Shown here: one piece after another, positions 1-17,458 of the stretch
Layout of the letters: the number at the start of each line of letters is the position of its first letter
How positions within the stretch are numbered: position 1 is the first letter of the stretch
Assembly (NCBI RefSeq): GCF_001499735.1
Contig: NZ_LN848257.1
Span: 4,420,340 to 4,463,575, forward strand
Length of the DNA stretch: 43,236 nucleotides
From: Thiocapsa sp. KS1
Lineage (GTDB): Bacteria; Pseudomonadota; Gammaproteobacteria; Chromatiales; Chromatiaceae
Direction of reading: 5' to 3'
Made by a program: the position numbers and the translations under genes
Notes under the pieces: generated by a model
Told to the model about the DNA's origin: nothing
Databases searched by the model: none
What the model saw: the letters and a program-made list of their open reading frames with translations, nothing else

Positions 1-2259
1 GTCGATGCTCGCGATCGGATAGATCGCGAACCGGCCCTGCGCGACCGCCTCGCGCACGTCGGCGCGCAGCATCAGATGCTTGACGTTGGACACCGGGATC
101 AGAACACCCTGGCCCTCGACCGGTCCACGTGCCGTGCAGGTGTCGAAGAAGCCCTCGATCTTCTCGTTGACCCCGCCGATCGCCTGGACCTCGCCGAGCT
201 GATTGACCGAGCCGGTGACGGCGAGCGACTGGCGGATCGGCAGATCGGCAAGCGCGGAGAGCAGGGCATAGAGCTCGGCCGAGGAGGCGCTGTCGCCCTC
301 GATGCCGCCGTAGGACTGCTCGAACACCAGGCTGGCCGAGAGCGACAGCGGATGGTCCAGGGCATAGCGCCCGGCGATGAAGCCCTGGAGGATGAGCACG
401 CCCTTGGAATGAATGGGACCGCCGAGCTTCACCTCGCGCTCGATGTCGATCAGCTCGCCCTTGCCCAGTCGCACCCGCGCGGTGATCCGGCTGGGATGTC
501 CGAACGCGAAGCCTCCGAGGCTCATGACCGCGAGCCCGTTGACCTGACCGACTCGTGCCCCGTCGGTTTCGATCAGGATGGTCCCCCGGGTGGTCTCTTC
601 ACGCAGCCGTCGGCTGATGCGGTCGGCGCGCGCGATCTTCGCATCGATGGCCTGTTGGACATGGGCCGCGCCGACGGTCTCGCATCCGTCCGCTCCGGCC
701 CAGTAATCGCTTTCGCGCACCAGATCGCCGATGGAGCGCATGTGACTGGTGAGCCGCTCGTTGTCGTCGGCCAGGCGCGCGCTCTGCTCGATCACCCGAG
801 CGACCGCGGCGCGGTCGAAGTGACGCAGCCCGGCACGCCGCACCTCGGAGGCGATGAAGCGCGCATAGACGAGATGGCTCTCCGGACCGCGCACGAGCTG
901 GTCTTCGAAATCCACGGCGACCTTGAAGAGCTCGCTGAATTCCGGGTCAAGCTCGCACAGCAGATAATAGATGTGCCGCTCGCCGAGCATCACGACCTTC
1001 ACGTCCAGCGGGATCGGCTCGGGCTCCAGCGACAGGGTGCTGATGAGACTGGTGATCTGGGCGAGCGACTCGATGCGGATCTCGGCGGCCTGCAGAAGAC
1101 GCTTCAAGGTCTCCCAGGCGAAGGGCTGCATCAGCAGCTTGAGTGCGTCGACGATCAGATAGCCGCCGTTGGCTTGGTGCAGCGCGCCGGCGCGGATCAT
1201 CGTGAAGTCCGTCTCCAACGCGCCGAGATGGGCGCGGTGCTCGATGCGACCGACCAACTGATGATGTGCCGGCAGATCGGCATAGACGACCGGGGCGCCG
1301 CCGTTCTTGTCGTGCCCCAAGAGCACGTTGATCCGGTAGCGTTGATGCCAGGGCGGACCATCCGGGTTCGGCGGGATCCAGATGCCGAGCAGCGGAGGTT
1401 GTTTGTCGTTCTCCGGCAGAAACTGGCGGAAGTTCTCCACCACGTCCGCCTGCACCTGGTGCAGATAGGCGATCACGGCCGGAAGATCGCCGTATGTCTC
1501 GCAGAGTGCCTCGACCAGGCCTTGCGTGGCGGCAGCGGCCATCTCGCGATTGAGCGCTTCGATATGCTCGTCGGAGCGCTTCTTCCAGAGCGGCATCTGG
1601 TGCAGGGCCTTGCGCATCTCGGCCTGCAGGCTGTTGATGTCCTCCTCGATCCGGGCACGGTCCTCGTCGGAGAGGGCGTGAAACTCGTTCGGACCGAGCG
1701 GTTTGCCGTCGCGCACCGGCGCGAGGGTAAAGCCGGTCGGGGTTTGCAGAAGGATGACATCCTTGTCTTTCGCCAGCTCGCGGATCTCGCCCATGGCCCG
1801 CTCTTGGCGCTCTTCCAACTCTTCTTCGAGCGCCTGGGTGCGGGTGCGGTACTCGTCGCTCTCGAAGACACCCTGGATCGCGCGGTGCAGATCCTCCACC
1901 AGCTGGTCCATGTCGCGCTTGAGCTCCGTCCCCTTGCCGGGCGGCAGACGCAGCGCGCGCGGGCGATGCGCGTCTTCGAAGTTGAAGACATAGCACCAAT
2001 CGGGGGGTACGGCCTCATGCTTTGCACGCTCTTGGAGTGCGCTGCGGATCAGGGCGTATTTACCCGTCCCGGACGGCCCCAGCGCGAAGAGGTTGTAGCC
2101 GGCGTGACGGATGCCGATCCCGAAACGGACGGCCTGAATCGCCCGATCCTGGGCGATCAGACCGTCGCGGACATCCAGATCGGCGGTGGTCTCGAGCGCG
2201 AGCTGTGCGGGGTCGCACTGCCGATAGAGTGCCGAGGGTTCCAGTGGCGTGACGCTCAT
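1..2259 (-). CDS. Lon-type AAA+ protease (LonB/YcbZ-like), C-terminus cut by window edge
   Basis: The minus strand is open for 753 codons from an ATG at 2259 to base 1. Residues 61-67 (GPSGTGK) form a Walker A motif. A long helical insertion follows, and a Lon protease domain lies at the C-terminal end. The catalytic dyad is visible: Ser657 in GDSASSA and Lys700 in VNEKIEG, 43 residues apart as in Lon Ser679/Lys722. This is the Lon family lacking the classical N-terminal LAN domain, predicted to be an ATP-dependent soluble protease. Its ATG overlaps the stop codon of the AMMECR1 gene (ATGA), so translation is probably coupled to the amrB-amrA unit. Substrates are unknown. A 743-codon reading frame on the opposite strand is only a shadow of this gene. 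Confidence 0.93.
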   Translation of the reverse strand, partial: MSVTPLEPSALYRQCDPAQLALETTADLDVRDGLIAQDRAIQAVRFGIGIRHAGYNLFALGPSGTGKYALIRSALQERAKHEAVPPDWCYVFNFEDAHRPRALRLPPGKGTELKRDMDQLVEDLHRAIQGVFESDEYRTRTQALEEELEERQERAMGEIRELAKDKDVILLQTPTGFTLAPVRDGKPLGPNEFHALSDEDRARIEEDINSLQAEMRKALHQMPLWKKRSDEHIEALNREMAAAATQGLVEALCETYGDLPAVIAYLHQVQADVVENFRQFLPENDKQPPLLGIWIPPNPDGPPWHQRYRINVLLGHDKNGGAPVVYADLPAHHQLVGRIEHRAHLGALETDFTMIRAGALHQANGGYLIVDALKLLMQPFAWETLKRLLQAAEIRIESLAQITSLISTLSLEPEPIPLDVKVVMLGERHIYYLLCELDPEFSELFKVAVDFEDQLVRGPESHLVYARFIASEVRRAGLRHFDRAAVARVIEQSARLADDNERLTSHMRSIGDLVRESDYWAGADGCETVGAAHVQQAIDAKIARADRISRRLREETTRGTILIETDGARVGQVNGLAVMSLGGFAFGHPSRITARVRLGKGELIDIEREVKLGGPIHSKGVLILQGFIAGRYALDHPLSLSASLVFEQSYGGIEGDSASSAELYALLSALADLPIRQSLAVTGSVNQLGEVQAIGGVNEKIEGFFDTCTARGPVEGQGVLIPVSNVKHLMLRADVREAVAQGRFAIYPIASID

Positions 2260-2861
2260 CCGCTGAAGGTCTCCGCGATCGGGGCGCCGAAGGATTCCGT
2301 GCTGTAGCGCGAGACCTCGAGGGTCTCGGACCAGTACCGCGAGGGCAGGCCCGCCTTGTGGCGCAGATGCTCGAAGAAAGCCGCGGGTTCGGGCACCTGC
2401 TCCCAGACCGAAGGCAGGAAGGTTCCCCGCCGGCCGCGATCTTCGAGGATCAGACCGTCGATGCCGGGCCGGATCTGTTCGAGCAGATCGGACTCCGACC
2501 GGAAGTGCATCGGCTCGGACGGACTCAGCACCGAGATGTGGATGTCCAGCCGCGGCAGCTCCGGGCGAGTCAGCGGCGGGAACCGCGGATCCTCGAAGGC
2601 CGCGGCGTAGGCGTTGCGGGCGACATCGACCACCAGCGGCCGGATCGCCTCCAGCACGCCGATGCAGCCGCGCAGCTCCCCGTCGATCTGCAGCGTGACG
2701 AAGGTCGCGCGCTCGGCTTGGAGCGCGGCCGGATAGTCGCGCGGATCCGGCTCCAGGGGAGCGCCCTGGTTCAACCCGTGCTCGATCGATTGGGCCGCAA
2801 CGGCCAACAACATCCGCCGCTCTTCGGCTCGGTAGACGCCTTCGGTTTCAGTGGAAGACAT
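2256..2861 (-). CDS. amrA: AmmeMemoRadiSam system protein A (AMMECR1 domain)
   Basis: This is a 201-residue protein that is almost entirely an AMMECR1 domain. The family signature LRGCIG is at residues 63-68, and the later stretch AAFEDPRFPPL is typical of the family. AMMECR1 proteins are conserved from archaea to humans but have no established biochemical role. In bacteria they are found with a Memo protein and a radical SAM enzyme, as here. I chose the ATG at 2861, which overlaps the 3' end of amrB by 14 bases; longer readings of this frame only extend into amrB. The stop codon overlaps the start of the Lon-like gene by ATGA. The arrangement indicates one transcript, amrB-amrA-lon. Confidence 0.93.
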   Translation of the reverse strand: MSSTETEGVYRAEERRMLLAVAAQSIEHGLNQGAPLEPDPRDYPAALQAERATFVTLQIDGELRGCIGVLEAIRPLVVDVARNAYAAAFEDPRFPPLTRPELPRLDIHISVLSPSEPMHFRSESDLLEQIRPGIDGLILEDRGRRGTFLPSVWEQVPEPAAFFEHLRHKAGLPSRYWSETLEVSRYSTESFGAPIAETFSG

Positions 2862-3633
2862 AGGCACCGTACCCCACCACCTGGTCTCGCGAGCCGGCGG
2901 TGTCGCCCGAGTTGCGCAGGTCGAGCGTGCGGGCCTGCATCCCGCGGCGTCGTGCCGTCTCGAGCAGTCCGTTGACCGGGATCCGCCCGCACGCCTGGTC
3001 GTATCCGATGTCTTGGGGGCGGAGCGCCTCGATGGCCTCCGAGGTCGCTGTATCCATCGCTCGCGCGGTTGCGTAGGTGTGATAGTGGCTGAGGTCAGAG
3101 CTGATGACGATGAGGGTCTCGGGACCGCCCCAGAGCAGATCGAGCACCTCGGCGACCTCGTCCGGACCGGCGTCGCCGACCACGAAGGGCACCAGGCTGA
3201 ACCGCTCCAACACCTCCTGCAGGAAGGGCAATTGCACCTCGAGGCTGTGCTCCTGTGCGTGCGCCGCATCCATCAGTCTGACCTGCGGCAGGGTCAGCGC
3301 CAGGTCGATCGCGTCACGGTCCAGCTCCACAGGGCCGAGCGGCGTGACGAACCGGTCCGCGCTGCTCGCGGCAAGGCCGCGCAGCGGTACGCGATGCGCC
3401 GGACCCAGCAGGACGACCCGGCGCACGCTCGCGCGGGCCGCGGCCAAGGTGGCATAGGCACTGGCGGCGACGGGACCGGAGTAGATCAAGCCGGCGTGCG
3501 GGACGATCAGGGCCTTGGGTGGCTCGCCGTCCGGACTCGCCTCGGCGAGGAGCTCGTCCACCGTCCGTTTGAGCACGCGGGGGTCGCCCGGATAGAAGAG
3601 ACCGGCCACCGCCGGGCTGCGAGAGAGTGACAT
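2848..3633 (-). CDS. amrB: AmmeMemoRadiSam system protein B (Memo family)
   Basis: The product is a 261-residue Memo-family protein, related to LigB-type dioxygenases and to human MEMO1. Residues matching the MEMO1 metal site can be placed: His46 in PHAGLIYSG, His80 in GPAHRVP and Cys215 in ACGRIPV, corresponding to MEMO1 His49, His81 and Cys244. The stretches EHSLEVQLPF and SSDLSHY are also family hallmarks. The start is the ATG at 3633, preceded by AGGAGG seven bases upstream, so longer in-frame starts were rejected. It is the first gene of the leftward unit and overlaps amrA. The family assignment is firm. The reaction is unknown, although metal or redox chemistry is likely from the conserved ligands. 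Confidence 0.93.
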   Translation of the reverse strand: MSLSRSPAVAGLFYPGDPRVLKRTVDELLAEASPDGEPPKALIVPHAGLIYSGPVAASAYATLAAARASVRRVVLLGPAHRVPLRGLAASSADRFVTPLGPVELDRDAIDLALTLPQVRLMDAAHAQEHSLEVQLPFLQEVLERFSLVPFVVGDAGPDEVAEVLDLLWGGPETLIVISSDLSHYHTYATARAMDTATSEAIEALRPQDIGYDQACGRIPVNGLLETARRRGMQARTLDLRNSGDTAGSRDQVVGYGAYVFH

Positions 3634-3835
3634 GGCTGTTTCCTCCTGACGGATGAGGGCCGTGAGGACCGGCTCGGGACAGGACCCGGGGGAGCGCGGC
3701 CTCATACGCAAAGTATAGACCGCAGGGGTAATGCGTCCTGCGAACGGGCAACCACGCCCGAGACCATACCGTCATCCGGGGTTGCAATCGGCCCCGGGTC
3801 TTCCACACTGAAGATATACAGAGCAGGAGGTTGCG
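3634..3835. promoter_or_regulatory. Divergent control region between amrB and amrS
   Basis: These 202 bases separate the two arms of the AmmeMemoRadiSam cassette and must hold promoters for both. On the minus strand, TATACT (3712-3717) is a good match to a -10 box, 79 bases before the amrB ATG, but I see no convincing -35 box. On the plus strand, the AT-rich stretch AAGATATACA (3811-3820) sits just before the amrS ribosome binding site. No clear operator palindrome was found. Confidence 0.35.
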
Positions 3836-4933
3836 ATGAACGGCGAGCGAATCGATCGCGTCGTCCCGACGCGCTACTGGCATGCCTTGGATGACGGTCG
3901 CGTCCAGTGCGACCTCTGTCCGCGTTTCTGCCGCATCAAGGAAGGACAGCGCGGCATGTGCTTCGTGCGGGCCTGTCAAGGCGGGGAGATCGTCCTGACG
4001 ACCTACGGACGATCATCCGGTTTCTGCATCGATCCGATCGAGAAGAAGCCACTCGATCATTTCCTGCCCGGCACCCCGGTGCTCTCCTTCGGGACCGCCG
4101 GCTGTAATCTGACCTGCAAGTTTTGCCAGAACTGGGACATGAGCAAGTCGCGCGAGATGGACACGCTCGCCGATGCCGCGGAGCCGGAGACGATCGCGCT
4201 GGCGGCCGAGTCGCTCGGTTGTCGCAGCGTCGCCTACACCTACAACGACCCGGTGATCTTCCACGAATACGCCATCGACGTGGCCCGGGCGTGCCGCGAG
4301 CGCGGCATCAAGTCGGTCGCCGTGACCGCCGGCTACATCTGTCCGGAGCCGCGGGTCGAATTCTTCCAATGGATGGATGCCGCCAACGTCGATCTGAAGG
4401 GTTTCACCGAGGATTTCTATCACCGACTCTGCAGCGGCCATCTGCAACCCGTCCTGGAGACCTTGGAGTATCTCGTCCGAGAGACCAAGGTCTGGGTCGA
4501 GCTGACGACCCTGCTGATCCCCGGTGAGAACGACTCGGAGGCCGAGCTGGAGTCCATGACCGCGTGGGTGGTCGAGCATCTCGGTCCCGATGTCCCGATG
4601 CATTTCACCGCCTTCCATCCGGACTACAAGATGCTCGAGCATCCGCGGACCCCGCTCTCGACCCTGACGCGCGCACGTGCGATTGCGATCAAGAACGGCG
4701 TCCGCTATGCCTACACCGGCAACGTGCACGACGAGGACGGCGAGAGCACATACTGTCACGGCTGCGGGCAGAAGCTCATCGGCCGGAACTGGTATCGGCT
4801 CTCGGATTGGAATCTGACCGCGGACGGTCGTTGCAACCGCTGCGGGACGGTCTGCGCAGGCGTCTTCGAGGCGGCGCCGGGCCAGTGGGGCGATCGGCGT
4901 CAGCCGGTTCGTCTGCGCGACTTCGCTGCCTGA
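3836..4933 (+). CDS. amrS: AmmeMemoRadiSam system radical SAM enzyme
   Basis: The 365-residue product has the radical SAM cluster motif C90-x3-C94-x2-C97 in AGCNLTCKFCQNW. It is preceded by a Cys-rich N-terminal segment (Cys25, Cys28, Cys32, Cys42). It ends with a zinc-ribbon-like C-terminus (CHGCG, then CNRCGTVC), which could carry zinc or an auxiliary cluster. AGGAGG lies directly before the ATG at 3836. The family is related to pyruvate-formate-lyase activating enzymes (COG1180), but within AmmeMemoRadiSam loci its substrate is unknown. It is divergent from amrB-amrA and leads a rightward group that continues with the gene at 5048 after 114 bases. The family assignment is firm; the reaction is not known. 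Confidence 0.94.
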   Translation: MNGERIDRVVPTRYWHALDDGRVQCDLCPRFCRIKEGQRGMCFVRACQGGEIVLTTYGRSSGFCIDPIEKKPLDHFLPGTPVLSFGTAGCNLTCKFCQNWDMSKSREMDTLADAAEPETIALAAESLGCRSVAYTYNDPVIFHEYAIDVARACRERGIKSVAVTAGYICPEPRVEFFQWMDAANVDLKGFTEDFYHRLCSGHLQPVLETLEYLVRETKVWVELTTLLIPGENDSEAELESMTAWVVEHLGPDVPMHFTAFHPDYKMLEHPRTPLSTLTRARAIAIKNGVRYAYTGNVHDEDGESTYCHGCGQKLIGRNWYRLSDWNLTADGRCNRCGTVCAGVFEAAPGQWGDRRQPVRLRDFAA

Positions 4934-5047
4934 CCGGAGGTCGGGCAGGAAGGAGCCCTCGAGCGCACGGATGGAGACCAGGTCGAGTCGCAACCAGGAC
5001 GCCGGTTCGGCGGGCAATCGGATTGCCGTGCCGAGCAGCAGGTCACG

Positions 5048-6265
5048 ATGATCAAGATCACCGGATTCATCCATCGCGAGGCACTGCACGACCTGATCGG
5101 GCGCTGGATGCTCGACCGATTCGAGCCGTCGGACCCGACGGCCCTGCTGGAGCTGGTCCACTTCAACTCCGTCTATGTCGCCCGTTACCTCCCGCTGTTT
5201 GCGGAGGGTTTGCTGCAGGGCGTGCACGGCGGACGGATCAGGCGTCGGACCTGCTTCACCAAGGGCGATCTCAAGGACCAGCTCGTCGCCTATCTGCCGG
5301 ACGCATCCGAGCGGGCGACCCGGTTGGTCGCCGACTACCGGGCCGACCCCGGACGTTTCTATCGCGAGACCCCGTTTCGGGGCACAGCCTATTTCACCGG
5401 CTCCGAAGGACAACGCCGTTATGTCGGGTCGAGCCGAATCAAGCGCATCCGGCGACTCGCCGAGAAGTCCGCGCGCAAGGTCGTCGATTGGCTGTACGAA
5501 GAGATCCTGCGTCGGGCTCGATCCGATCCGCGGCTTCCGGAATCCGGCGCGAGGATCGGCGGCCTCGTCGGACCGACCCGACCCGATCTTGCTCACGACC
5601 CCGCCCGCGCCATCGACAGCCTCGAAGCGCACGGGCGCGCGCTCCTGCATCGTCTGCGCGCGATGCCTGCGCCGGGATGGCTTCATGATGTCGAGATCAA
5701 CGACGTCGCCGGGATCAAGGTCGTCATTGCACCCGACGCGGAGGCGCGTCTGGCCGAGGTTCTCGGCGGGCTGGGGTGTTGGCCGGTGGAGCGCGAGGTC
5801 CATCGGGGCGATTACAGCGCAGTGAATCTGCTCGTCGATTTTCACCCGGACAAGGACCGGATCCTGGCGCAGGGGCTCCCCGAGAAGGTCCTGCGGGTCT
5901 TCGAGGTCCATGGCATCCCGCCATGCGAAACCCGCCGCCGTTTCGAGACCTTCGTGCGCAGCGGCGAGCCGGCTGTGCGCGTGGAGATCATCTGCTCGGA
6001 CGCTGCCGAGACCTTGGAGAGCGAGATCGGCCGCTGCATGCACGAGGACCGTATCATCCGCCAGCGTCTGGGTCGGGCCTACCAAGGGCACCTGTCGCAA
6101 AATGTGGAGTTCCTGCTTGAGTACCTTTTCGCGCTGCCGGCGGCACCCGAGGCTCGACTCGATCGATTGCCCGTGCGACTCTGGGAGCGGTACCTCCCGG
6201 ACTACTTCGACGAGGTCAAGCGCGCGCTTTTCCGCGTGCCGTCCGTGGAGCTGGATCCGGATTGA
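5048..6265 (+). CDS. Unrecognised protein with RelA/SpoT-like motifs
   Basis: The product has 405 residues, no signal peptide and no membrane segment, and I do not recognise it as a named family. Its middle and C-terminal parts show three motifs in the order found in RelA/SpoT nucleotidyltransferases. INDVAGIKVVI resembles the D(I/L)xGxR strand. HRGDYSAVNLLVDF resembles the DYI..PK.NGYxSLH region. VRVEIICSD followed by an ESEIG..MHED helix resembles the vEiQiRT/aE segment. This similarity is by eye and weak, and the K/R-rich GSSRIKRIRRLAEKSARK stretch would take the place of the usual KSxxSIxxK motif. The ATG has only a poor ribosome binding site, and no alternative GTG lies just upstream. 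A link to amrS is inferred from position only. Confidence 0.7.
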   Translation: MIKITGFIHREALHDLIGRWMLDRFEPSDPTALLELVHFNSVYVARYLPLFAEGLLQGVHGGRIRRRTCFTKGDLKDQLVAYLPDASERATRLVADYRADPGRFYRETPFRGTAYFTGSEGQRRYVGSSRIKRIRRLAEKSARKVVDWLYEEILRRARSDPRLPESGARIGGLVGPTRPDLAHDPARAIDSLEAHGRALLHRLRAMPAPGWLHDVEINDVAGIKVVIAPDAEARLAEVLGGLGCWPVEREVHRGDYSAVNLLVDFHPDKDRILAQGLPEKVLRVFEVHGIPPCETRRRFETFVRSGEPAVRVEIICSDAAETLESEIGRCMHEDRIIRQRLGRAYQGHLSQNVEFLLEYLFALPAAPEARLDRLPVRLWERYLPDYFDEVKRALFRVPSVELDPD

Positions 6266-6298
6266 CCCCGTCGAGACACGAGGACCAAGGAGACAAGC

Positions 6299-7663
6299 AT
6301 GCCGGCCAAAGCGTTCGACGTCGTCATCATCGGGGCGGGACCCGCCGGGCTGTTCGCGGCCATGCGGCTCGCGGACAGGATGAAGATCCTGGTCATCGAC
6401 CGCCGCCCGCGGCCTGGCGGGGCCGGCGGCTACACGGACGGCAAGCTCAACCTTTCTCCCCACATCGGACTGGATCTCGCGGAGCTCGGGCTGTCGGAGG
6501 AGGAGGCGACCCGTCGGATCCAGGAGGTGGATCGGATCTTTCTCGACCACGGGGCGGACCCGACGCTGCACGGTCTGGACGAGGCGCGCATTCAATGGTG
6601 GCTCGACCGCGTCTCCTGGGTCCGCCGGCCGGCCTCGAAGGGTCGCTGGGACATCCAGCTGGTTCCGGTGGTGCAGCGGCACATGGGGACCGACTTCGCG
6701 CACCGGGTCACCAAGGCGATGGCCGACACGGTCGAGCGCCGCGGCGGCACCTTGATGCTGGGGACCGCGGTGACCGAGATTCGCCGCGAGGCCGACGGCG
6801 GTTTCCTCATCGAGACCGCCGCAAGCGCCTTTCGCGCCCCCTATCTGGTCTGCTCGCCGGGCCGCGAGGGCGCCTACTGGTTCCGCGAGAAGGCACGCGC
6901 GCTCGGGGTGCGCACCGGCCATGGTGCAATCGACATCGGCTGCCGGGTCGAGATTGCCTCCGCCGTCTACGAGGAGATCACCGACGTTCTCTACGACCCC
7001 AAGTTCATCTTCTGCACACCGACCCATCAGGATCGCACCCGCACCTTCTGCACCAATCCGGGCGGACATGTCCGGATCGAGGAGCATCGCGACTTTCGTC
7101 TGGTCAACGGCGACGCGCTGAAGGCATCCAAGACGGCCAACACCAACTTCGCGATCCTGAATACGGTAAGCATGACCGAGCCGCTGCAGGACACCACCGA
7201 GATGGGTCAGCAGGTCGCGCGCTTCGCCAACTTTTGGGGCGGCGGCAACAGCCTGGTCATGCAGCGCTGGGGCGATCTCATGGCCGGGCGACGCTCCAAG
7301 GCGCAGAGCTTCTTCTCGGCCGAGCTGGGCTTCGACAAGTTGATGCCGACCCTGCCGCCAGGCCCCGGCGTCACGCCCGGCGACATCTCCTTCGCCTATC
7401 CGGGTCGGATCGTGCGCAACCTCCAGGAGAGCCTCGAGCTGCTCGCTCGCGTCATCCCGGGCGTCGCCCATCCCTCCACCATCATCTATGTGCCCGAGAT
7501 CAAGTTCTACGATGTCCGCTACCCGACCAGCCGCGAGCTGGAAACGGATGTGCCCGGACTCTTTGTCGCGGGCGACGGGGCCGGGAAGTCCCGCGGCATC
7601 GTAGGCGCGGCGGTCAACGGGCTGATGGCGGCGGAGGGGATCCTGCGGCGGGTCGGACTCTGA
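6299..7663 (+). CDS. FAD-dependent dehydrogenase (COG2509-like)
   Basis: The product is a 454-residue flavoprotein. The N-terminus carries the Rossmann dinucleotide motif GAGPAG (residues 12-17). The C-terminus carries the second FAD-contacting segment, VPGLFVAGDGAGKSRGIVG followed by AAVNGLMAAEGI. The overall pattern matches the uncharacterised NAD(P)/FAD-dependent dehydrogenase group typified by COG2509. There is no signal peptide, so the protein is cytoplasmic. AAGGAG precedes the ATG, and the gene starts 33 bases after the RelA/SpoT-like gene, so the two are probably co-transcribed with amrS. The substrate is unknown. A 1152-codon reading frame on the opposite strand over this region is a shadow. 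Confidence 0.88.
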   Translation: MPAKAFDVVIIGAGPAGLFAAMRLADRMKILVIDRRPRPGGAGGYTDGKLNLSPHIGLDLAELGLSEEEATRRIQEVDRIFLDHGADPTLHGLDEARIQWWLDRVSWVRRPASKGRWDIQLVPVVQRHMGTDFAHRVTKAMADTVERRGGTLMLGTAVTEIRREADGGFLIETAASAFRAPYLVCSPGREGAYWFREKARALGVRTGHGAIDIGCRVEIASAVYEEITDVLYDPKFIFCTPTHQDRTRTFCTNPGGHVRIEEHRDFRLVNGDALKASKTANTNFAILNTVSMTEPLQDTTEMGQQVARFANFWGGGNSLVMQRWGDLMAGRRSKAQSFFSAELGFDKLMPTLPPGPGVTPGDISFAYPGRIVRNLQESLELLARVIPGVAHPSTIIYVPEIKFYDVRYPTSRELETDVPGLFVAGDGAGKSRGIVGAAVNGLMAAEGILRRVGL

Positions 7664-7719
7664 ACCCTACAGGCACAAAGAGCGCGAACCGAGGAAGTTG
7701 AGATCAAATGATCCGCCTG

Positions 7720-7734
7720 CCTCATCCCATGAGG
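7720..7734. terminator. Small hairpin in convergent spacer
   Basis: CCTCAT-CCC-ATGAGG forms a six-pair stem with a three-base loop, 57 bases after the flavoprotein stop and in the spacer shared with the convergent RlpA-like gene. There is no clear T tract, so a terminator role is only plausible. Confidence 0.3.
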
Positions 7735-7817
7735 GTCTCGGGTCGGCAGCACACGCAACGGTTGTGCGAACGGGTTTTGCGCGATAGACAATTTGTTGCA
7801 CCGGACTATTTCACTAT

Positions 7818-8270
7818 CTATCGAGAGGTGTTGCCGGAGTCCGTACGCGGTTGCGGCTGAGGCTCGATGCTGACCTGGGAGGTTCCGTCGTCTTCCATAT
7901 CCAGCCTACTGGCCGCTGCGCGTGAAAGATCGATGACCCGATCCCCCACGTAAGGCCCACGATCATTGATCCTGACCTCGACCTTTTTGTCGTTCTCGAG
8001 GTTGGTCACTTCAGCCGTGGTCCCCATCGGCAACGTTGGATGGGCAGCCGTCATCTTGTTCTGATCGAAGGTCTCGCCACTCGCGGTTTCGTTGCCTTGA
8101 AATCCGGGGCCGTACCAGGACGCTTCGCCGACCTCGTTCCGGCCCGGTTTGGTGGCCCCCGCACCCCCTTTGCCGTGCTCGACCGACTCCTCCGAGTTAC
8201 ATCCGGTTAGCGCAAAGGCGGCAATCAGAACAAGTCGCGAGAATTGGGCAAGACGGTCGCGTTGTGACAT
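7818..8270 (-). CDS. RlpA-like double-psi beta-barrel lipoprotein
   Basis: The predicted 150-residue protein starts at the ATG at 8270. A signal sequence ends in the lipobox LTGC, with Cys24 as the lipidated residue. The mature part is mostly a double-psi beta-barrel of RlpA type: GEASWYGPGFQGNETASGE, then TAAHPTLPMGT, then VRINDRGPYVGDRVIDLS. The Asp in NDRGP is the conserved catalytic-site-like residue. RlpA proteins bind or cleave peptidoglycan glycan strands lacking stem peptides. This one has no SPOR domain, so it is a short RlpA-like protein, not the septal full-length type. The frame extends upstream to another possible start, but the lipobox fixes the start given here. Confidence 0.88.
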   Translation of the reverse strand: MSQRDRLAQFSRLVLIAAFALTGCNSEESVEHGKGGAGATKPGRNEVGEASWYGPGFQGNETASGETFDQNKMTAAHPTLPMGTTAEVTNLENDKKVEVRINDRGPYVGDRVIDLSRAAASRLDMEDDGTSQVSIEPQPQPRTDSGNTSR

Positions 8271-8394
8271 TGAAGTTCCAGCTCTCAGTGATGAGGCCTC
8301 ACCCCTCGTTTGGCGGGGTACCAGGCATGAAAGCAATTATCCCCTTGCGGTTCCGCAGGCTCTGTGCGGCAGCGTACCGTGGCAGAATCCTCGC

Positions 8395-8460
8395 CCGACG
8401 GGAAGAGTCGGGAATGGCTTGAGTCTAGCGAAGCTCAGAACCTTCGCGCCTTCCCGTCGG
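8395..8460. repeat. Inverted repeat before the exchanger gene
   Basis: CCGACGGGAAG (8395-8405) is repeated as its exact reverse complement, CTTCCCGTCGG (8450-8460). An alternative local hairpin, CCCGAC/GTCGGG (8394-8399 with 8407-8412), shares the left arm. The two structures are mutually exclusive, which could matter in a leader RNA for the gene at 8520, but no function is shown. It lies in a 249-base spacer between divergent genes, where I see no other feature. Confidence 0.35.
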
Positions 8461-8519
8461 CGCTGTAGACTCCGCAGCCTGCCAAGTCCAACCCCTATCC
8501 TGAGGCGTTTCGGCTCACT

Positions 8520-9488
8520 ATGGTTTTAGCTTCACTCTCCGTCGCCTTCGGTCTGGCACTGCTGCTGTGGAGCGCCGATCGCTTCGTCGAAGGCTCCGCC
8601 GTGACCGCCCGACATCTGGGCATGCCGCCCTTGCTGATCGGCATGGTGATCGTCGGCTTCGGAACCTCGGCTCCGGAGATGGTCGTCTCCGCCTTGGCGG
8701 CCATGCAGGGGAATCCCGGTCTCGCGCTCGGGAATGCCTACGGCTCGAACATCACCAATATCGCGCTGATCCTGGGGCTGACCGCAATCATCAGCCCCAT
8801 CGCGGTTCATTCGAGCGTGCTCCGCAAGGAGCTTCCGATCCTCGCGGCTGTCACGGTCTTCGCCGTCGTCATGTTGATGGACGGCGACTTGACTCGCACG
8901 GACGCCTGGGCCTTCTTAGGCGTTTTCGCGGCGCTGATGGCCTGGAGCGTTCGCGAAGGTCTGCATCATCGCTCCGATGCCTTGGCCGGCGAGATGACGC
9001 AGGAGCTCGATGCGGCCGAGATGCCTTTGCGCCGGGCGCTGCTGTGGGTGGTTGTCGGTCTCGTCTTCCTGATCGTCAGCTCGCGACTCTTGGTCTGGGG
9101 TGCGGTGGAGATCGCGCATGCACTGGGTGTGAGCGACCTCATCATCGGTTTGACGATCGTCGCCGTGGGAACCTCGCTGCCCGAGCTGGCCTCCTCGATC
9201 ATCGCCGCGCGCAAGGGCGAGCACGACATTGCCCTGGGCAACATCATCGGGTCGAATCTGTTCAATACGCTTGCGGTGGTCGGGATCGCGGGGGCGATCC
9301 ATCCGATGGTCGTGCCCCCGGAGGTCATCTCGCGGGACATGATGGTAATGGGCCTGTTGACGCTGTCCTTGTTCGTGCTCGGTTACGGGTTTCGCGGACC
9401 GGGTCGCATCAATCGCATCGAGGGGCTGCTGCTTCTGGCCTGCTACGTCGGCTACACCGCCTACCTGATCAGCACCCTCTTCAAATAG
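8520..9488 (+). CDS. yrbG: Calcium/sodium antiporter, YrbG-type (CaCA family)
   Basis: The product is a 322-residue inner-membrane protein with the two inverted alpha-repeats of the Ca2+/cation antiporter family. Repeat 1 has GFGTSAPEMVVS and later GNAYGSNITNI. Repeat 2 has AVGTSLPELASSI and later GNIIGSNLFNT. The acidic residues in the TSAPE and TSLPE motifs are the ion ligands in this family. About ten hydrophobic segments are separated by a central acidic cytoplasmic loop near residues 155-165. The start matches the known YrbG N-terminus (LLLWSADRFVEGS near residue 20), although no good ribosome binding site precedes the ATG. A strong hairpin follows the gene. The exact ion specificity cannot be read from sequence. 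Confidence 0.93.
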   Translation: MVLASLSVAFGLALLLWSADRFVEGSAVTARHLGMPPLLIGMVIVGFGTSAPEMVVSALAAMQGNPGLALGNAYGSNITNIALILGLTAIISPIAVHSSVLRKELPILAAVTVFAVVMLMDGDLTRTDAWAFLGVFAALMAWSVREGLHHRSDALAGEMTQELDAAEMPLRRALLWVVVGLVFLIVSSRLLVWGAVEIAHALGVSDLIIGLTIVAVGTSLPELASSIIAARKGEHDIALGNIIGSNLFNTLAVVGIAGAIHPMVVPPEVISRDMMVMGLLTLSLFVLGYGFRGPGRINRIEGLLLLACYVGYTAYLISTLFK

Positions 9489-11982: not shown

Positions 11983-12200
11983 GGTGCATCTCTCGGCTGG
12001 GATGGGATTGACCTGGCGCCCTGATGCTAGTCGCCGTCCGTTGCGAGGACGTGACGGGAGGCATGCCGATTCACGCTTAAAAAACAGGGTTTTTGATTCT
12101 CGGCGACTCGAGGTATCGATTGATCCACGTCAGGCATTCGGCTCGACCCGCCTGTCGTCGCATTGACGCGCCGGTCGTGAAAACCCTAAAGTCCGCGGCT

Positions 12201-12402
12201 GATCTTCCGGTGCCTCGAAGGCGTTGCCTTCGGGGTTAAACGGGAAGTCGGTGCGCGGCCCTCTCTGGTGCCGCAACGCCGACGCTGCCCCCGCAACGGT
12301 AGACGAGTCAAGACGCGGCAAGATGCCACTGTGAGTCATCACGGGAAGGCGCCGCGTCGGGGTCCAACCCCGCTCGTGAGCCCGGAGACCGGCCGGATGA
12401 TC
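12201..12402 (+). promoter_or_regulatory. Cobalamin (AdoCbl) riboswitch
   Basis: The conserved core of the B12 riboswitch is present in order: CGGTGCC near 12208, TTAAACGGGAAGTCGGTG around 12231, GCTGCCCCCGCAACGGTA (the B12-box region) around 12285, CCACTG, ACGGGAAGG, and the closing GAGCCCGGAGACCGGCC near 12378-12394. The ends pair as a P1 helix (TTCCGG with CCGGAT). It lies upstream of btuB and the cob genes and should reduce their expression when adenosylcobalamin is abundant. Confidence 0.93.
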
Positions 12403-12437
12403 GGGGACCGTTTCGCTGTGTTTCGCGTGCGCGCAAG

Positions 12438-12628: not shown

Positions 12629-14479
12629 ATGAGATTTCCTCTTATGGCGGCGGCCTTGTCGCTGCCGTTCGGTCTGCCGGTCCACGCGGACACGCAGACC
12701 GTGACCCTTGATCCCTTGGTCGTCACGGCGACACGAACGCCTGAGACCGAAGACAAAACCCTGGCCTCCGTGAGCGTGATCGATCGCGAAGAGATCGAGC
12801 GCCGCCAGTTTCGCTCGGTTCCGGATGCGCTGCGCGGTCTGCCGGGCGTCTCCGTTTCGGGCAGCGGCGGGGCCGGGCAGCCTGCGTCGCTTTTTCTGCG
12901 CGGCACCAATGCCGGCCATGTCCTGGTCCTGATCGACGGCGTGAAGGTAGGCTCGGCAACCCTCGGGACCGCGCCTTTGCAGGATCTACCGATCGCTCAG
13001 ATCGAGCGCATCGAGGTCGTGCGCGGCCCGCGCTCGAGCCTCTACGGCTCCGAGGCGATCGGCGGCGTGATCCAGATCTTCACGCGTCGCGGCGGCGGTC
13101 CGTTGCGACCCCGTTTCAGCGTGGGCGCCGGGAGCTTCGACACCGCGAGTGTCGCGGGCGGCATCTCGGGCGGCGGCGAGCGTGGCTGGTTCGACGTCGG
13201 CGCCAACCTTGAGTACACCGACGGGATCAATGCCTGCGACGGCCGCGCCTTCCCCTTCGCCGGTTGCGGCGTGGACGAGCCGGATCGCGACGGCTACCGC
13301 AATCTGGGCGTGAGTGCGCGCGCCGGTTATGAATTCAGCGACAGGGCAAAGGTCGACTTCAGTCTCCTCACCTCCGACAACCGGACCGATTTCGACGGCT
13401 CCATCTTCTCGGGCAACCTCTCGCGCTCCGATCAGCAGGTGCTCGGCGTGGAGGGCACCTTGCGTCCGCTCGACCCCTGGACCCTGATCCTCTCGGCCGG
13501 TCGCAGTCAGGACAGCTATCGGGCGTTTTACGCGGATACCTTTGTCCCCGAGCGTTTCGTCGACAGCTTCGAGACCGAGCGCGACAGCTTCGGCATCCAG
13601 AACGATCTCGCCTTGATCCCGGACCAGCTCTTCACCTTGGGTCTGGACTACCAGGTCGACCGGATCTCGGGCACCGTGGACTACACGGACGATTCGCGCA
13701 GCAACACGGGTGTCTACGGACAGTATCTCGGCACCATCGGGGCGAACGAGATTGCCGCAAGCCTCAGATACGACGACTACCAGCAATTCGGCGGACAGAC
13801 CACCGGCAACGCGGCCTGGGGTTATCTCTTCGAGCAGGGGATTCGCGTCTCCCTGTCCTACGGCACCGCCTTCAAGGCGCCGACCTTCAACGATCTTTAC
13901 TATCCGGGGTTCGGCAACCCGAATCTATCCCCGGAGGAATCCGCCAGCCTGGAGCTGGGCCTGACCGGCGTGTTGCCGTTGGGCCGCTGGGAGCTGAGTC
14001 TCTACGAGACCGACATCGACGACCTGATCGCCTTCGATTCGGTCACCTACGCCCCGGCCAACATCGCCTCGGCCCGCATCCGCGGCTTCGAGGCGTCCGG
14101 CATGCTCCAGGTTCAGGAGTGGAACCTCGGCGCGAGCCTCACCATGCTGGATCCCGAAAACCGCTCGGACGGCCCGAATCAGGGTAACCTCTTGCCCCGC
14201 CGTCCCGAGCAGATGGTCCAGCTCGACCTCGATCGCCAATTCGAGCGCTGGTCGGCCGGTCTGAGTGTCTATGTCGCCGGGCGGAGCTTCGACGATCTGG
14301 CCAACAACGAGCGTCTGGACGGCTACACACTGTTGGGTCTGCGCGCCGAGTATGCCCTCACGCCTGCGGTGTCGATTCAGGGCCGGCTCGAGAACGCACT
14401 CGACGAGGACTACCAGACCGCGTATCTGTTCAACCAGCCGGGGAGGGCGTTTTACCTGACCTTGAGATACGAGCCTTGA
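12629..14479 (+). CDS. btuB: TonB-dependent vitamin B12 receptor BtuB
   Basis: The product has 616 residues. A signal peptide ends near VHA-DT (residue 20), followed by a TonB-box-like segment (TLDPLVVTATR). A plug domain follows with LRGTNAGHVLVLIDGVK and IERIEVVRGPRSSLYGSEAIGG, and then a 22-strand-type barrel ending in an aromatic residue-containing strand (FYLTLRYEP). Two cysteines around residues 205-217 (CDGRAFPFAGC) could form an extracellular-loop disulfide. BtuB moves corrinoids across the outer membrane using TonB energy. The start at 12629 follows GGAG by seven bases. An upstream in-frame ATG (12593) lacks a good site and would mask the signal peptide. The riboswitch upstream and cob genes downstream support the substrate. 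Confidence 0.93.
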   Translation: MRFPLMAAALSLPFGLPVHADTQTVTLDPLVVTATRTPETEDKTLASVSVIDREEIERRQFRSVPDALRGLPGVSVSGSGGAGQPASLFLRGTNAGHVLVLIDGVKVGSATLGTAPLQDLPIAQIERIEVVRGPRSSLYGSEAIGGVIQIFTRRGGGPLRPRFSVGAGSFDTASVAGGISGGGERGWFDVGANLEYTDGINACDGRAFPFAGCGVDEPDRDGYRNLGVSARAGYEFSDRAKVDFSLLTSDNRTDFDGSIFSGNLSRSDQQVLGVEGTLRPLDPWTLILSAGRSQDSYRAFYADTFVPERFVDSFETERDSFGIQNDLALIPDQLFTLGLDYQVDRISGTVDYTDDSRSNTGVYGQYLGTIGANEIAASLRYDDYQQFGGQTTGNAAWGYLFEQGIRVSLSYGTAFKAPTFNDLYYPGFGNPNLSPEESASLELGLTGVLPLGRWELSLYETDIDDLIAFDSVTYAPANIASARIRGFEASGMLQVQEWNLGASLTMLDPENRSDGPNQGNLLPRRPEQMVQLDLDRQFERWSAGLSVYVAGRSFDDLANNERLDGYTLLGLRAEYALTPAVSIQGRLENALDEDYQTAYLFNQPGRAFYLTLRYEP

Positions 14480-14492
14480 GATTGCCGCCGGC

Positions 14493-14507
14493 CGCTGGCC
14501 ACCAGCG
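14493..14507 (+). terminator. Short hairpin after btuB
   Basis: CGCTGG-CCA-CCAGCG forms a six-pair stem 14 bases after the btuB stop. There is no T tract, so it may be an mRNA-stability or processing structure inside the operon and not a true terminator. Confidence 0.3.
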
Positions 14508-14521
14508 AATGGGTGGATGAA

Positions 14522-14542
14522 GGCAGGCGGCAGGCGGCAGGA
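14522..14542. repeat. Three tandem 7-base repeats
   Basis: GGCAGGC, GGCAGGC and GGCAGGA follow one another directly in the btuB to membrane-protein spacer (14480-14656). The last copy differs at its final base. Nothing else is recognised in this spacer. Confidence 0.5.
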
Positions 14543-14656
14543 TGCTTCCCATAACCCAACCGCTTTCGACACCCCGTGCGACCACCTACAATGGCCGCAC
14601 GACACTTGCTTTTCACCACATTGTCGCCCCGGCGACGCGACCAGGAGACCGACCTC

Positions 14657-15244
14657 ATGACCCCCATCACCGACTCTCGCAGCCGTATCCTGATCGGCCT
14701 TGCCTTGGCCGCCCTCATGGCGGCGACGCGCGGCCAACAGTTCGCCCCGCTGGCGCACCATCTTCCGGATGCCTCGCTGGCCGTCTTCTTCCTGGCCGGT
14801 TTGTATCTGCGCTCGATTTGGGGCTTTCCTGCCCTCTTCGGTCTTGCGACCGTCATCGATCTGACCGCCATCGGTTGGGGCGGCGTGAGCGGCTACTGCA
14901 TGACCCCTGCCTACTGGATGTTGGTTCCGGCCTACGGCGTGGTCTGGGGGATGGGTCGCTGGTCCGGCGGTCGTCTCGAAATGACCAAGGACAGCCTGCC
15001 TCTGCTCTTCGGCGTCCTGCTTGCCGGCGGTGTCCTGTCCGAGGTCTTCGCCAGTGGCGGCTTCTATCTCTTCTCCGGTCGCTTTGCCGACCTGAGCGCG
15101 GTCGAGCTGCTCGGGCGCTTCGCGACCTACATGCCGGCGACCCTGCTTCATCTGATGGTTTATGTGGGCCTGGCCGCGGTCGTTCATCTGACCCTGGCGC
15201 GCGCCCTGCCGGGGACGCGTTCCGAGCGTGCCCGCCCGCAATGA
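14657..15244 (+). CDS. S-component-like membrane protein, candidate corrinoid or cobalt transporter
   Basis: The product is a 195-residue integral membrane protein with about five to six hydrophobic segments and no recognised catalytic motif. The N-terminal pattern (an amphipathic start, then a segment ending in FAPLAHHLPDASLAVFF, then FLAGLYLR) resembles small ECF-transporter S components and related families of unknown transport proteins. I could not assign it to one family. AGGAGA precedes the ATG at 14657, and longer in-frame starts lack a site. Its stop overlaps the cobO start (ATGA). Sitting between btuB and cobO under a B12 riboswitch, it is a candidate inner-membrane permease for a corrinoid or cobalt. 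That role is inferred from context only. Confidence 0.85.
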   Translation: MTPITDSRSRILIGLALAALMAATRGQQFAPLAHHLPDASLAVFFLAGLYLRSIWGFPALFGLATVIDLTAIGWGGVSGYCMTPAYWMLVPAYGVVWGMGRWSGGRLEMTKDSLPLLFGVLLAGGVLSEVFASGGFYLFSGRFADLSAVELLGRFATYMPATLLHLMVYVGLAAVVHLTLARALPGTRSERARPQ

Positions 15245-15846
15245 CCGACGACAGCGCACAGGAGCGCCATCGCCGGCGCATGCAGCGCCAGAAGGAGCTC
15301 GTGGATGCCCGTATCGCGCGGGCCGACCAGGACTGCGGTGTCCTGGTCGTCAACACCGGCAACGGCAAGGGCAAGAGCTCCTCGGCCTTCGGGATGGTCG
15401 CCCGTGCGATGGGCCACGGCATGAAGGTCGCCGTGGTCCAGTTCATCAAGGGTAGCTTCGCGACCGGGGAGGAGGCCTTCTTCAGGCGCTTTCCCGAGCT
15501 CGAGTATCACGTGATGGGCGAGGGTTTCACCTGGGAGACGCAGGATGCCGAGGCGGATCGGCGCGCGGCGATGGCGGCCTGGGAGAAGGCCGCCGCCTTC
15601 CTCGCCGATCCCGCCTTCGGCATGGTGGTGATGGACGAGCTCAACATCGCACTCAAGCTCCGCCTGGTTCCGCTCGATGTGGTTCTCGATGCCTTGCAGA
15701 ACCGTCCCATCCATCAGCATGCGGTCGTCACCGGCCGTGCGGCGCCCGCGGAGTTGATCGAGATCGCCGACACGGTCACCGAGATGCGCCCGCTCAAGCA
15801 TGCCTTCGATGCCGGCATCATGGCGCAGAAAGGGGTCGAGCTCTGA
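15241..15846 (+). CDS. cobO: Cob(I)yrinic acid a,c-diamide adenosyltransferase
   Basis: The product is a 201-residue CobO/BtuR/CobA-type corrinoid adenosyltransferase. The nucleotide-binding loop NTGNGKGKSS lies at residues 38-47. Other hallmarks follow: VAVVQFIKG, VVMDELNIAL and the C-terminal LKHAFDAGIMAQKGVE. The enzyme transfers the adenosyl group of ATP to cob(I)alamin-type corrinoids in the cytoplasm. Its ATG overlaps the stop of the preceding membrane protein (ATGA), and cobU starts two bases after its stop, so all are coupled. A longer reading frame upstream in the same frame runs through the neighbouring gene and was not used. Confidence 0.95.
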   Translation: MTDDSAQERHRRRMQRQKELVDARIARADQDCGVLVVNTGNGKGKSSSAFGMVARAMGHGMKVAVVQFIKGSFATGEEAFFRRFPELEYHVMGEGFTWETQDAEADRRAAMAAWEKAAAFLADPAFGMVVMDELNIALKLRLVPLDVVLDALQNRPIHQHAVVTGRAAPAELIEIADTVTEMRPLKHAFDAGIMAQKGVEL

Positions 15847-15848
15847 GC

Positions 15849-16406
15849 ATGGATGATCTGCTCCGTCCCCGCTCCGACGGGGGCGGACGCACCCTGATCC
15901 TCGGCGGGGTGCGCTCGGGCAAGAGTCGCCTGGCCGAGCGTCTGGCCATCGAAAGCGCACTTCCGGTCGTTTATGTGGCGACCGCACACGCGGGGGACGC
16001 CGAGATGACCCGGCGGATTGCCGGGCATCGCGAGCGTCGCCCGCACGACTGGGGCCTCATTGAAGAACCGCTCTTGTTGGCCGAGGTGCTGGCGCGCGAA
16101 TGTGCGCCCGATCGCTGCATCCTGGTCGACTGTCTGACACTTTGGTTGACGAATTGGCTTATGAAAACGGATGAATCGGGTCTGCACGATCAGACCCGGG
16201 CACTGCTCGATGTCGTTTCACGGGCGCCCGGGCGCCTCATCATGGTCGGCAACGAGACGAGCATGGGCGTGGTTCCGCTCGGTGCGCTCTCGCGTCGGTT
16301 TTGCGACCTGGCCGGTGTGCTGCACCAGGATTTGGCGGCGCGCTGCGACCGGGTCGTGCTGACCGTGGCCGGCCTGCCCCTCGTGCTCAAAGGAGAACCG
16401 ACATGA
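15849..16406 (+). CDS. cobU: Adenosylcobinamide kinase / adenosylcobinamide-phosphate guanylyltransferase
   Basis: The product is a 185-residue CobU/CobP enzyme. The P-loop GGVRSGKS is at residues 19-26. His60, in the GHRERRP motif, corresponds to the guanylylated His46 of Salmonella CobU. VDCLTLWLTNW and GNETSMGVVP are also typical. The enzyme phosphorylates adenosylcobinamide and then attaches GMP, giving AdoCbi-GDP. It starts two bases after cobO, and its stop overlaps the cobT start (ATGA). The kinase activity also allows salvage of imported cobinamide, consistent with the BtuB receptor in the same operon. Confidence 0.95.
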   Translation: MDDLLRPRSDGGGRTLILGGVRSGKSRLAERLAIESALPVVYVATAHAGDAEMTRRIAGHRERRPHDWGLIEEPLLLAEVLARECAPDRCILVDCLTLWLTNWLMKTDESGLHDQTRALLDVVSRAPGRLIMVGNETSMGVVPLGALSRRFCDLAGVLHQDLAARCDRVVLTVAGLPLVLKGEPT

Positions 16407-17458
16407 TCGAAGGTCTGCGCTGGATCAGCCAACCCTGCCTGCCGATCGATGCCATGGCCGCCGATGCGGCGCGGCGCCGGCAGGATCAGCTCACCAAACC
16501 TCGTGGATCGCTGGGCCGACTCGAAGAGATTGCGATCCGGCTCGCCGGCTTGCAGGGCACGCCGACACCCTCGCCCGATCCCGTGCAGATCCTGCTCTTC
16601 GCAGCCGACCACGGGGTTGCCGCCGAGGGCGTCTCGGCCTTCCCGCAGGCCGTGACCAACCAGATGGTGCGCAACATCGCCGGCGGCGGTGCCGCGATCT
16701 CGGTGCTCGCACGCGCACTGGATGCGCGCATGGAGATCACGGATCTCGGGACGGTCGAGGATCCGGGGCCGATCCCGAACCTGCGCTCCGAGCGCATCGG
16801 CCCGGGAACCGGCAACATCGCGCGTGAGCCGGCGATGAGCGACGAGCAGCTCGCCGCGGCCATGAATGCCGGTCGCGCCGCAGTCGAGCGCGCGGTCGAC
16901 AGCGGGGCGCGGCTGCTGATCTGCGGCGAGATGGGCATCGCCAACACCACCCCGGCGACGGCCTTGGCCTGTGCGCTGCTGGATCTGCCGGCCGGAGCGC
17001 TCGTCGGCCCCGGCACCGGGTTGGATCAGCCGGGGGTCATGCGCAAGGCCGAGGTCATCACCAAGGCGCTGGCGCGGCACGTCACCTCCGGTCGCACCCC
17101 GTTGGAGCTGCTGGCTCGACTCTCCGGGTTCGAGCTTGCCGCCATGACCGGTACCTTCATCACGGCCGCCCAGCGCGGACTCCCGGTGTTGGTCGACGGC
17201 TTCATCGTGAGTGCGTCGGCGCTCGCCGCCGTGCGCCTCCAGCCCGAGGTCCGCAATTGGCTATTGTTCGCCCACGGCTCCGCGGAGCCCGGGCATCGCC
17301 GCATCATGACCGCCCTGGCTGCCGACCCGCTGCTCGATCTGGGTCTGCGCCTCGGTGAAGCCAGCGGCGCCGCCGTCGCCGTGCCCCTGTTGCGGTTGGC
17401 CTGCACGCTGCACCAGCAGATGGCGACCTTCGGCGAGGCCGGGGTGAGCGAAGCCTGA
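16403..17458 (+). CDS. cobT: Nicotinate-nucleotide--dimethylbenzimidazole phosphoribosyltransferase
   Basis: The product is a 351-residue CobT protein. Signature segments include LTKPRGSLGRLEEIA (residues 30-44), AADHGVAAEGVSAFP, GEMGIANTTPA and the C-terminal RLGEASGAA. Glu319 in that last motif matches the catalytic glutamate (Glu317) of Salmonella CobT. The enzyme activates the lower-ligand base, usually dimethylbenzimidazole, to alpha-ribazole phosphate. AGGAG lies before the ATG, which overlaps the cobU stop. The cobT stop in turn overlaps the cobC start (TGATG). Confidence 0.96.
   Translation: MIEGLRWISQPCLPIDAMAADAARRRQDQLTKPRGSLGRLEEIAIRLAGLQGTPTPSPDPVQILLFAADHGVAAEGVSAFPQAVTNQMVRNIAGGGAAISVLARALDARMEITDLGTVEDPGPIPNLRSERIGPGTGNIAREPAMSDEQLAAAMNAGRAAVERAVDSGARLLICGEMGIANTTPATALACALLDLPAGALVGPGTGLDQPGVMRKAEVITKALARHVTSGRTPLELLARLSGFELAAMTGTFITAAQRGLPVLVDGFIVSASALAAVRLQPEVRNWLLFAHGSAEPGHRRIMTALAADPLLDLGLRLGEASGAAVAVPLLRLACTLHQQMATFGEAGVSEA

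What the first reader, a model, noticed from the sequence alone, without database searches (positions are those of the whole stretch)
1..7663. AmmeMemoRadiSam cassette with a Lon-like protease, a possible alarmone-synthetase relative and a flavoprotein
Seen: two divergent units, amrB-amrA-lon (14-base and ATGA overlaps) and amrS-orf5048-flavoprotein (gaps of 114 and 33 bases). Known: AMMECR1, Memo and this radical SAM enzyme form a conserved trio without a known function. Inferred: the translationally coupled Lon-like protease and the two extra genes may belong to the same pathway, perhaps a radical-SAM protein modification controlled by proteolysis. This is the window's best candidate for an undescribed system.
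Basis: partly seen in the sequence, partly recalled or inferred. Interest (0 to 1): 0.72.

Follow-up and report, generated by a model that had tools for sequence, protein, structure and literature searches.

The report
Thiocapsa cassette around a radical-SAM trio
A widespread but unexplained three-gene set (a radical-SAM enzyme plus the bacterial relatives of human AMMECR1 and MEMO1) carries extra neighbours in purple sulfur bacteria of the genus Thiocapsa: a Lon-type protease that usually partners another gene, and an unrecognised protein that may be a distant cousin of the enzymes that make bacterial alarm signals.

Summary
The genes, overlaps and gaps are as described. AmrA, AmrB and AmrS exceed their NCBIfam cut-offs. 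The window's genome shares its genus with named Thiocapsa genomes.

The divergent amrAB/amrS core is common: 47 of 60 class loci I chose. The extras are lineage-specific.

The protease is a LonC type. A universal-stress-protein gene follows it at 12 of 18 loci away from amr. It lies beside amr in 10 of 11 Thiocapsa genomes, two related genera and a few others; one Thiocapsa lost it there but keeps amrABS.

orf5048 lies directly behind amrS in 9 of 9 Thiocapsa genomes with both on one contig. Outside the genus: 0 of 320 class genomes. No Pfam family matches. A low-confidence model ranks Rel/SpoT/small alarmone synthetases first; the motif signal is weak. 'Alarmone-synthetase relative' is thus plausible at fold level; activity unknown. 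A flavoprotein follows in 9 of 10.

Most likely: an ordinary AmmeMemoRadiSam core, a stress-protease pair joined by position, and a Thiocapsa-specific Rel-like protein plus flavoprotein. 'Proteolysis-controlled radical-SAM modification' is not supported. The Rel-like protein is the part worth testing.

The parts
1..2259 (-). LonC-type protease gene (753 aa in the window; continues past the window's left edge, 829 aa by my gene caller)
   Evidence: Pfam AAA_32, LonB_AAA-LID, LonC_helical, Lon_C; GPSGTGKY, GGYLIVDA, GDSAS, GVNEKIEG and CTARGPVE motifs; full length
2256..2861 (-). amrA (AMMECR1 family)
   Evidence: PF01871 166.7 bits; TIGR04335 205.8 vs cut-off 99
2848..3633 (-). amrB (Memo family); likely start ATG at 3633, read by eye
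   Evidence: PF01875 183.6 bits; TIGR04336 259.8 vs 26; start read
3634..3835 (.). intergenic region between the divergent amrB and amrS (about 200 bases; 188-332 in the genus), presumed to hold both promoters
   Evidence: no promoter scan was run
3836..4933 (+). amrS (AmmeMemoRadiSam radical SAM enzyme; CNLTCKFC motif)
   Evidence: TIGR04337 666.1 vs 220
5048..6265 (+). orf5048: 405-aa orphan, candidate divergent Rel/SpoT-like nucleotidyltransferase
   Evidence: no Pfam/NCBIfam/PHROG/PADLOC match; low-confidence model ranks Rel/SAS first; dN/dS 0.19-0.36
6299..7663 (+). FAD-dependent oxidoreductase (distantly COG2509-like)
   Evidence: PF01266 51.5 bits, PF21688 27.6 vs 27; best solved chain 3nlc_A, E 1.8e-8

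Best explanation
An ordinary AmmeMemoRadiSam core (amrB-amrA divergent from amrS) that gained neighbours in two steps. Step 1: before Thiocapsa and two related genera (G557, G546) separated, a LonC protease - universal stress protein pair came to lie behind amrA; it works as a general, probably ATP-independent protease and is most likely tied to amr by position only. Step 2: in the Thiocapsa stem, orf5048 and a flavoprotein were inserted behind amrS, where G557 and G546 have genes that look like fmdB-aspS-nudB. orf5048 is most likely a divergent Rel/SpoT-fold nucleotidyltransferase with proposed counterparts of the metal-binding acid pair (D219, E313), the basic ATP-binding residues (R130, K132, K140) and the stacking tyrosine (Y256). 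It would transfer pyrophosphate or a nucleotidyl group from ATP to a small metabolite or RNA end, and act with the substrate or product of AmrS. Shown: gene order, distribution in the samples, purifying selection, LonC motifs, the LonC-USP pair. Inferred: the order of the two steps (identities only, no tree), the fold, catalytic competence, and any functional link to AmrS.
Confidence: 0.55

Rival explanations
1. All six genes form one pathway: AmrS with AmrA/AmrB modifies a protein, the LonC protease removes modified or unmodified forms, orf5048 sets the level by an alarmone-like nucleotide, and the flavoprotein supplies electrons to the radical SAM cluster.
For: All six genes lie on one contig in 7 of 11 Thiocapsa genomes while the right flank is broken or expanded; LonC also lies within 10 kb of amrS in 5 of 31 other family genomes with LonC and in G366.
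Against: LonC and USP lost from the locus in G200 and lon interrupted in G546 (which could be sequencing error) while amrABS stay; flavoprotein not behind orf5048 in G205; 0 of 60 chosen class amr loci carry any of the extras; LonC is followed by USP at 12 of 18 loci away from amr.
Confidence: 0.12
2. orf5048 and the flavoprotein are passengers: a genus-specific insertion kept in place only because nothing disrupted it, with no link to AmrS.
For: Found only in Thiocapsa in the samples searched; orf5048 evolves faster (dN/dS 0.19-0.36) than amrS (0.06-0.16); the orf5048-flavoprotein gap varies from 24 to 228 bases.
Against: Adjacency to amrS kept in 9 of 9 checkable genomes at amrS dS up to 1.14 while the next gap to the right changes by up to tens of kilobases.
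Confidence: 0.3
3. orf5048 is a toxic small-alarmone-synthetase-type effector (tRNA or nucleotide pyrophosphokinase) of a toxin-antitoxin or defence unit.
Against: No antitoxin family among the neighbours, though a fused antitoxin part is not excluded; the gene stays in one place across the genus; no match in plasmids, phages or viral contigs or PADLOC.
Confidence: 0.08
4. orf5048 is not Rel-like at all; the fold match and motif spacing are coincidence from a poor model.
For: Mean pLDDT 47, with the basic block and D219 in blocks at 29-34; no PF04607 hit at E up to 1 in 9 orthologs; weak single-sequence motif scores.
Against: The 13 best rows are named members of one enzyme family (with repeats of the same proteins), followed mostly by other nucleotidyltransferases; the profile's motif order is reached by only 15 of 3000 column shuffles.
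Confidence: 0.25

Closest known systems
AmmeMemoRadiSam system (TIGR04335/TIGR04336/TIGR04337)
   Same: All three proteins over the NCBIfam cut-offs and adjacent; divergent amrBA/amrS order as in 47 of 60 class loci surveyed
   Different: Further genes (LonC, USP, orf5048, flavoprotein) sit around it in Thiocapsa
LonC proteases (Meiothermus taiwanensis MtaLonC, PMC3391209, passages seen)
   Same: Ser-Lys dyad, Walker B-like motif without Glu, CX3G-type insertion, LonC_helical domain
   Different: Insertion has P for L in the window copy; followed by a USP-like gene and, here, next to amrA
RelA/SpoT and small alarmone synthetases (PF04607)
   Same: Best structural matches; R-x-K...K, D-x-x-G-x-K, Y-x-x-x-N, E...E-x-G...H pattern in order
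   Different: No sequence-profile match; about 79 residues lie between K140 and D219; His of the G-loop replaced by Asn; extra C-terminal region
CapRel/toxSAS tRNA pyrophosphokinases
   Different: No antitoxin partner seen; stable chromosomal place
VP0956-type FAD-dependent protein (3nlc; COG2509 by recall)
   Same: Weak sequence similarity (E 1.8e-8 over 329 residues)
   Different: 95 residues shorter, not shown to be orthologous

Membership tests
AmmeMemoRadiSam system | AMMECR1, Memo and the specific radical SAM enzyme over their NCBIfam cut-offs | tested here: met
   205.8/99, 259.8/26, 666.1/220 bits
AmmeMemoRadiSam system | the three genes lie together | tested here: met
   2256-4933; same divergent order in 47 of 60 chosen class loci
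LonC protease | Ser-Lys dyad | tested here: met
   GDSAS and GVNEKIEG; that these hold the dyad is from recalled Lon motifs
LonC protease | Walker B glutamate missing | tested here: met
   GGYLIVDA against GYLILDA quoted in PMC3391209
LonC protease | CX3GLX(G/E) insertion | tested here: inconclusive
   CTARGPVE in the window, P in place of L; CX3GLX(G/E) in most of the more distant homologues
LonC protease | no ATPase activity | not testable with these tools
   needs purified protein
RelA/SpoT synthetase family (PF04607) | profile match over the gathering score | tested here: not met
   no Pfam match for the window protein; in 9 orthologs no PF04607 at E up to 1
RelA/SpoT synthetase family (PF04607) | Rel synthetase fold | tested here: inconclusive
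RelA/SpoT synthetase family (PF04607) | metal-binding Asp and Glu, basic ATP-binding residues, G-loop Tyr and His | tested here: inconclusive
   R130, K132, K140, D219, Y256, E313 invariant in 9 orthologs; G-loop His is N260; residue roles recalled, not from a call; R130-K140 and D219 in low-confidence parts of the model
COG2509 / FAD-depend_C (PF21688) | PF21688 over its gathering score | tested here: met
   27.6 vs 27 bits, marginal
toxSAS toxin-antitoxin | cognate antitoxin next to or fused to the synthetase | tested here: inconclusive
   neighbours are amrS and a flavoprotein, and G205 has no flavoprotein there; a fused antitoxin part was not tested

The most novel reading that the evidence does not exclude
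orf5048 founds an undescribed family of Rel-fold nucleotidyltransferases that works with AmrS: the AmmeMemoRadiSam product (or its precursor) is pyrophosphorylated or nucleotidylated, with the flavoprotein as redox partner. If so, Thiocapsa holds a biochemical handle on what the AMMECR1-Memo-radical SAM trio makes.
Probability: 0.13. Interest if true: 0.78.

Novelty: new variant of a known kind. Interest (0 to 1): 0.4.

Why it matters
AMMECR1 and MEMO1 are conserved from archaea to humans (recalled), and an archaeal survey lists the AMMECR1 family among top-priority uncharacterised proteins (PMC6393860, passage). My searches of an open-licence library found no paper that settles what the bacterial trio does (listings). 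A lineage in which a possible nucleotidyltransferase gene stays locked behind amrS gives a concrete partner to test. The survey also suggests that the Lon-type protease belongs with a universal stress protein gene rather than with amr, which removes a misleading clue.

Tried and rejected
Selenocysteine in a second AmrS paralogue: 11 family genomes showed paralogues with 1-3 in-frame TGA, plus G218 as a partial match. Reading the 11 loci showed TGA directly after a conserved G-(V/I)-W-(Q/K), followed by unconserved sequence, in 11 of 11, so it is the normal stop.

orf5048 homologue in G103 (E 5.8e-4): the frame I read there is low-complexity and blastp gives only chance pieces.

hhalign of orf5048 against Rel and hmmsearch with a Rel HMM did not support a relation, but both used some wrong-frame rows because minus-strand loci were not turned. 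I replaced them with a four-block test. Its first version: 25 of 2000 shuffles reached the window protein's score, and 7 of 723 proteins beat it, 3 of them its own orthologues. The second version (shorter last block, softer weights, locus L206 left out): 15 of 3000 column shuffles reach the profile score, but at least 11 unrelated proteins among 723 outscore the single window sequence, and the last block falls elsewhere in 6 of 9 single orthologues. So the sequence signal alone is weak and the test was not blind.

PADLOC matches to LonC, AmrS and the flavoprotein are weak partial hits and were dismissed. Paper searches: seen as listings with starts of abstracts; none of the listings was a study of the trio's bacterial function, and no paper held both 'small alarmone synthetase' and 'Thiocapsa'. 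Passages were seen of PMC7159879, PMC6393860, PMC3391209 and PMC11559606; a word search of PMC3153485 found none of the residue names. A recalled 2019 paper on Memo relatives is not held under the DOI I tried.

Not obtained: a domain-only model of orf5048 and a plain Foldseek PDB search.

Full report
What is there. The window's first 7.7 kb holds lon (1-2259, minus, cut by the window edge), amrA, amrB, and on the other strand amrS, orf5048 and a flavoprotein gene. The overlaps and gaps are exactly those reported. NCBIfam puts AmrA, AmrB and AmrS far over their cut-offs. The genome is held as 10.4 Mb in 43 contigs. A scan of named genomes with the orf5048 alignment, which reaches close relatives only, found 6 loci: 5 in records named Thiocapsa and one MAG that matches a genome of the same genus (T. 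roseopersicina DSM 217 at 94% identity).

The core is ordinary. I chose 60 class loci from the strong amrS matches (not at random: contigs long enough to show flanks; most stretches 14 kb, the shortest 7.9 kb). amrB lies divergently right before amrS in 47; 11 have no amrA or amrB called in the stretch. Hits to lon, orf5048, flavoprotein or the USP-like gene: 0 of 60 (tblastn E up to 1e-6).

How far the extras go. In the genus (11 genomes including the window's): lon behind amrA in 10 of 11 (in G200 only fragments remain there); orf5048 in 10 of 11 (not seen in G202, whose contig ends inside amrS); amrS-orf5048 adjacency in 9 of 9 genomes with both on one contig (in G207 one contig ends just behind amrS and another cuts orf5048); flavoprotein behind orf5048 in 9 of 10 (not in G205). 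Seven genomes show all six genes on one contig. A comparison of the window's first 20 kb with the genus shows the block kept while the next gene to the right lies 0.9 to about 28 kb away or, in G203, elsewhere in the chromosome. Gaps inside the block vary: the ATGA overlap of amrA and lon holds in 4 genomes, the orf5048-flavoprotein gap is 24-228. Outside the genus orf5048 was found in 0 of 27 relatives and 0 of 320 class genomes with the 9-row profile, and not in plasmids, phages or, with short exact peptide patterns, viral contigs; one hit among 200 phylum genomes is spurious. The flavoprotein has no full-length match in the 320 other class genomes (the best are partial, 25-33% identity).

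Lon. The protein carries AAA_32, LonB LID, LonC helical and Lon protease domains. It has the Ser-Lys dyad motifs, a Walker A-like GPSGTGK, and a Walker B-like GGYLIVDA without the glutamate. PMC3391209 (passages) describes these features for LonC, with no ATPase activity. Of 18 LonC loci away from amr that I fetched (15 picked from high-scoring rows, plus G473, G552 and G216), 12 have a USP-like gene directly behind; so do 9 of the 10 Thiocapsa genomes with lon. LonC near amrS outside Thiocapsa: G557 and G546 (same order as Thiocapsa, with genes that by eye look like fmdB, aspS and nudB behind amrS instead of orf5048), G214, G541 and G587 in the family (5 of 31 non-Thiocapsa genomes with LonC; read), and G366 in another family. 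For the class I compared by eye the listed best places of amrS and LonC in 71 other genomes; only G366 had them within 10 kb. Three genomes had unlisted amrS places, and weaker amrS paralogues and contig breaks were not resolved. The lon of G546 carries stops and frame breaks, which could be sequencing error. On identities alone, lon joined the locus before Thiocapsa arose, and it is dispensable there in at least G200. The number of separate proximities is higher than I would expect by chance, and I cannot explain it fully.

Reading. The best-supported picture is a known trio with two lineage-specific additions: a LonC-USP stress pair most likely joined by position, and a Thiocapsa-specific, probably Rel-like nucleotidyltransferase with a flavoprotein. 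The second is the only part with a case for a functional link to AmrS. I give that link a modest probability; co-transcription, biochemistry and gene removals would decide.

Noticed in passing
L165-L176 and L073 (for example L165:4968-12094): A second Amr-type cluster in the family and in one Thiocapsa (G208): a roughly 1210-aa protein, a small protein (73-95 aa), an AmrS paralogue and Memo plus AMMECR1 parts (not every part was called in every locus). Pfam was run on L165 only: the large protein has spermine-synthase, FMN_bind and 4Fe-4S domains, Memo and AMMECR1 are fused, and an Hsp20 gene lies next. The fusion starts like a signal peptide (by eye). It suggests an exported, electron-transfer-linked version of the trio.
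   Followed up: partly
L111, L113, L114, L117, L118, L120-L123, L126, L163, L164: LonC-type protease followed directly by a universal-stress-protein-like gene at 12 of 18 loci away from amr.
   Followed up: yes
window 12191-12411 and 12644-18795: Cobalamin riboswitch (108.7 bits) ahead of a run of genes that by eye look like cobalamin uptake and synthesis.
   Followed up: no
window 18858-18902: A dispersed repeat of about 45 bases with many copies in several Thiocapsa genomes.
   Followed up: no
window 7664-8520: Rearrangement-prone junction right of the flavoprotein: 0.9 to about 28 kb of DNA between the same two genes, or a move elsewhere, in relatives; the small gene at 7818-8336 lies elsewhere in G200, G205 and G209.
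   Followed up: partly
G000: The assembly is 10.4 Mb while the other genomes of the genus are 3.3-6.1 Mb, so it may hold more than one organism's DNA.
   Followed up: no
window 4013-7471 minus: A 1152-aa open frame antisense to amrS, orf5048 and the flavoprotein; my codon-usage gene caller prefers the plus-strand genes.
   Followed up: partly
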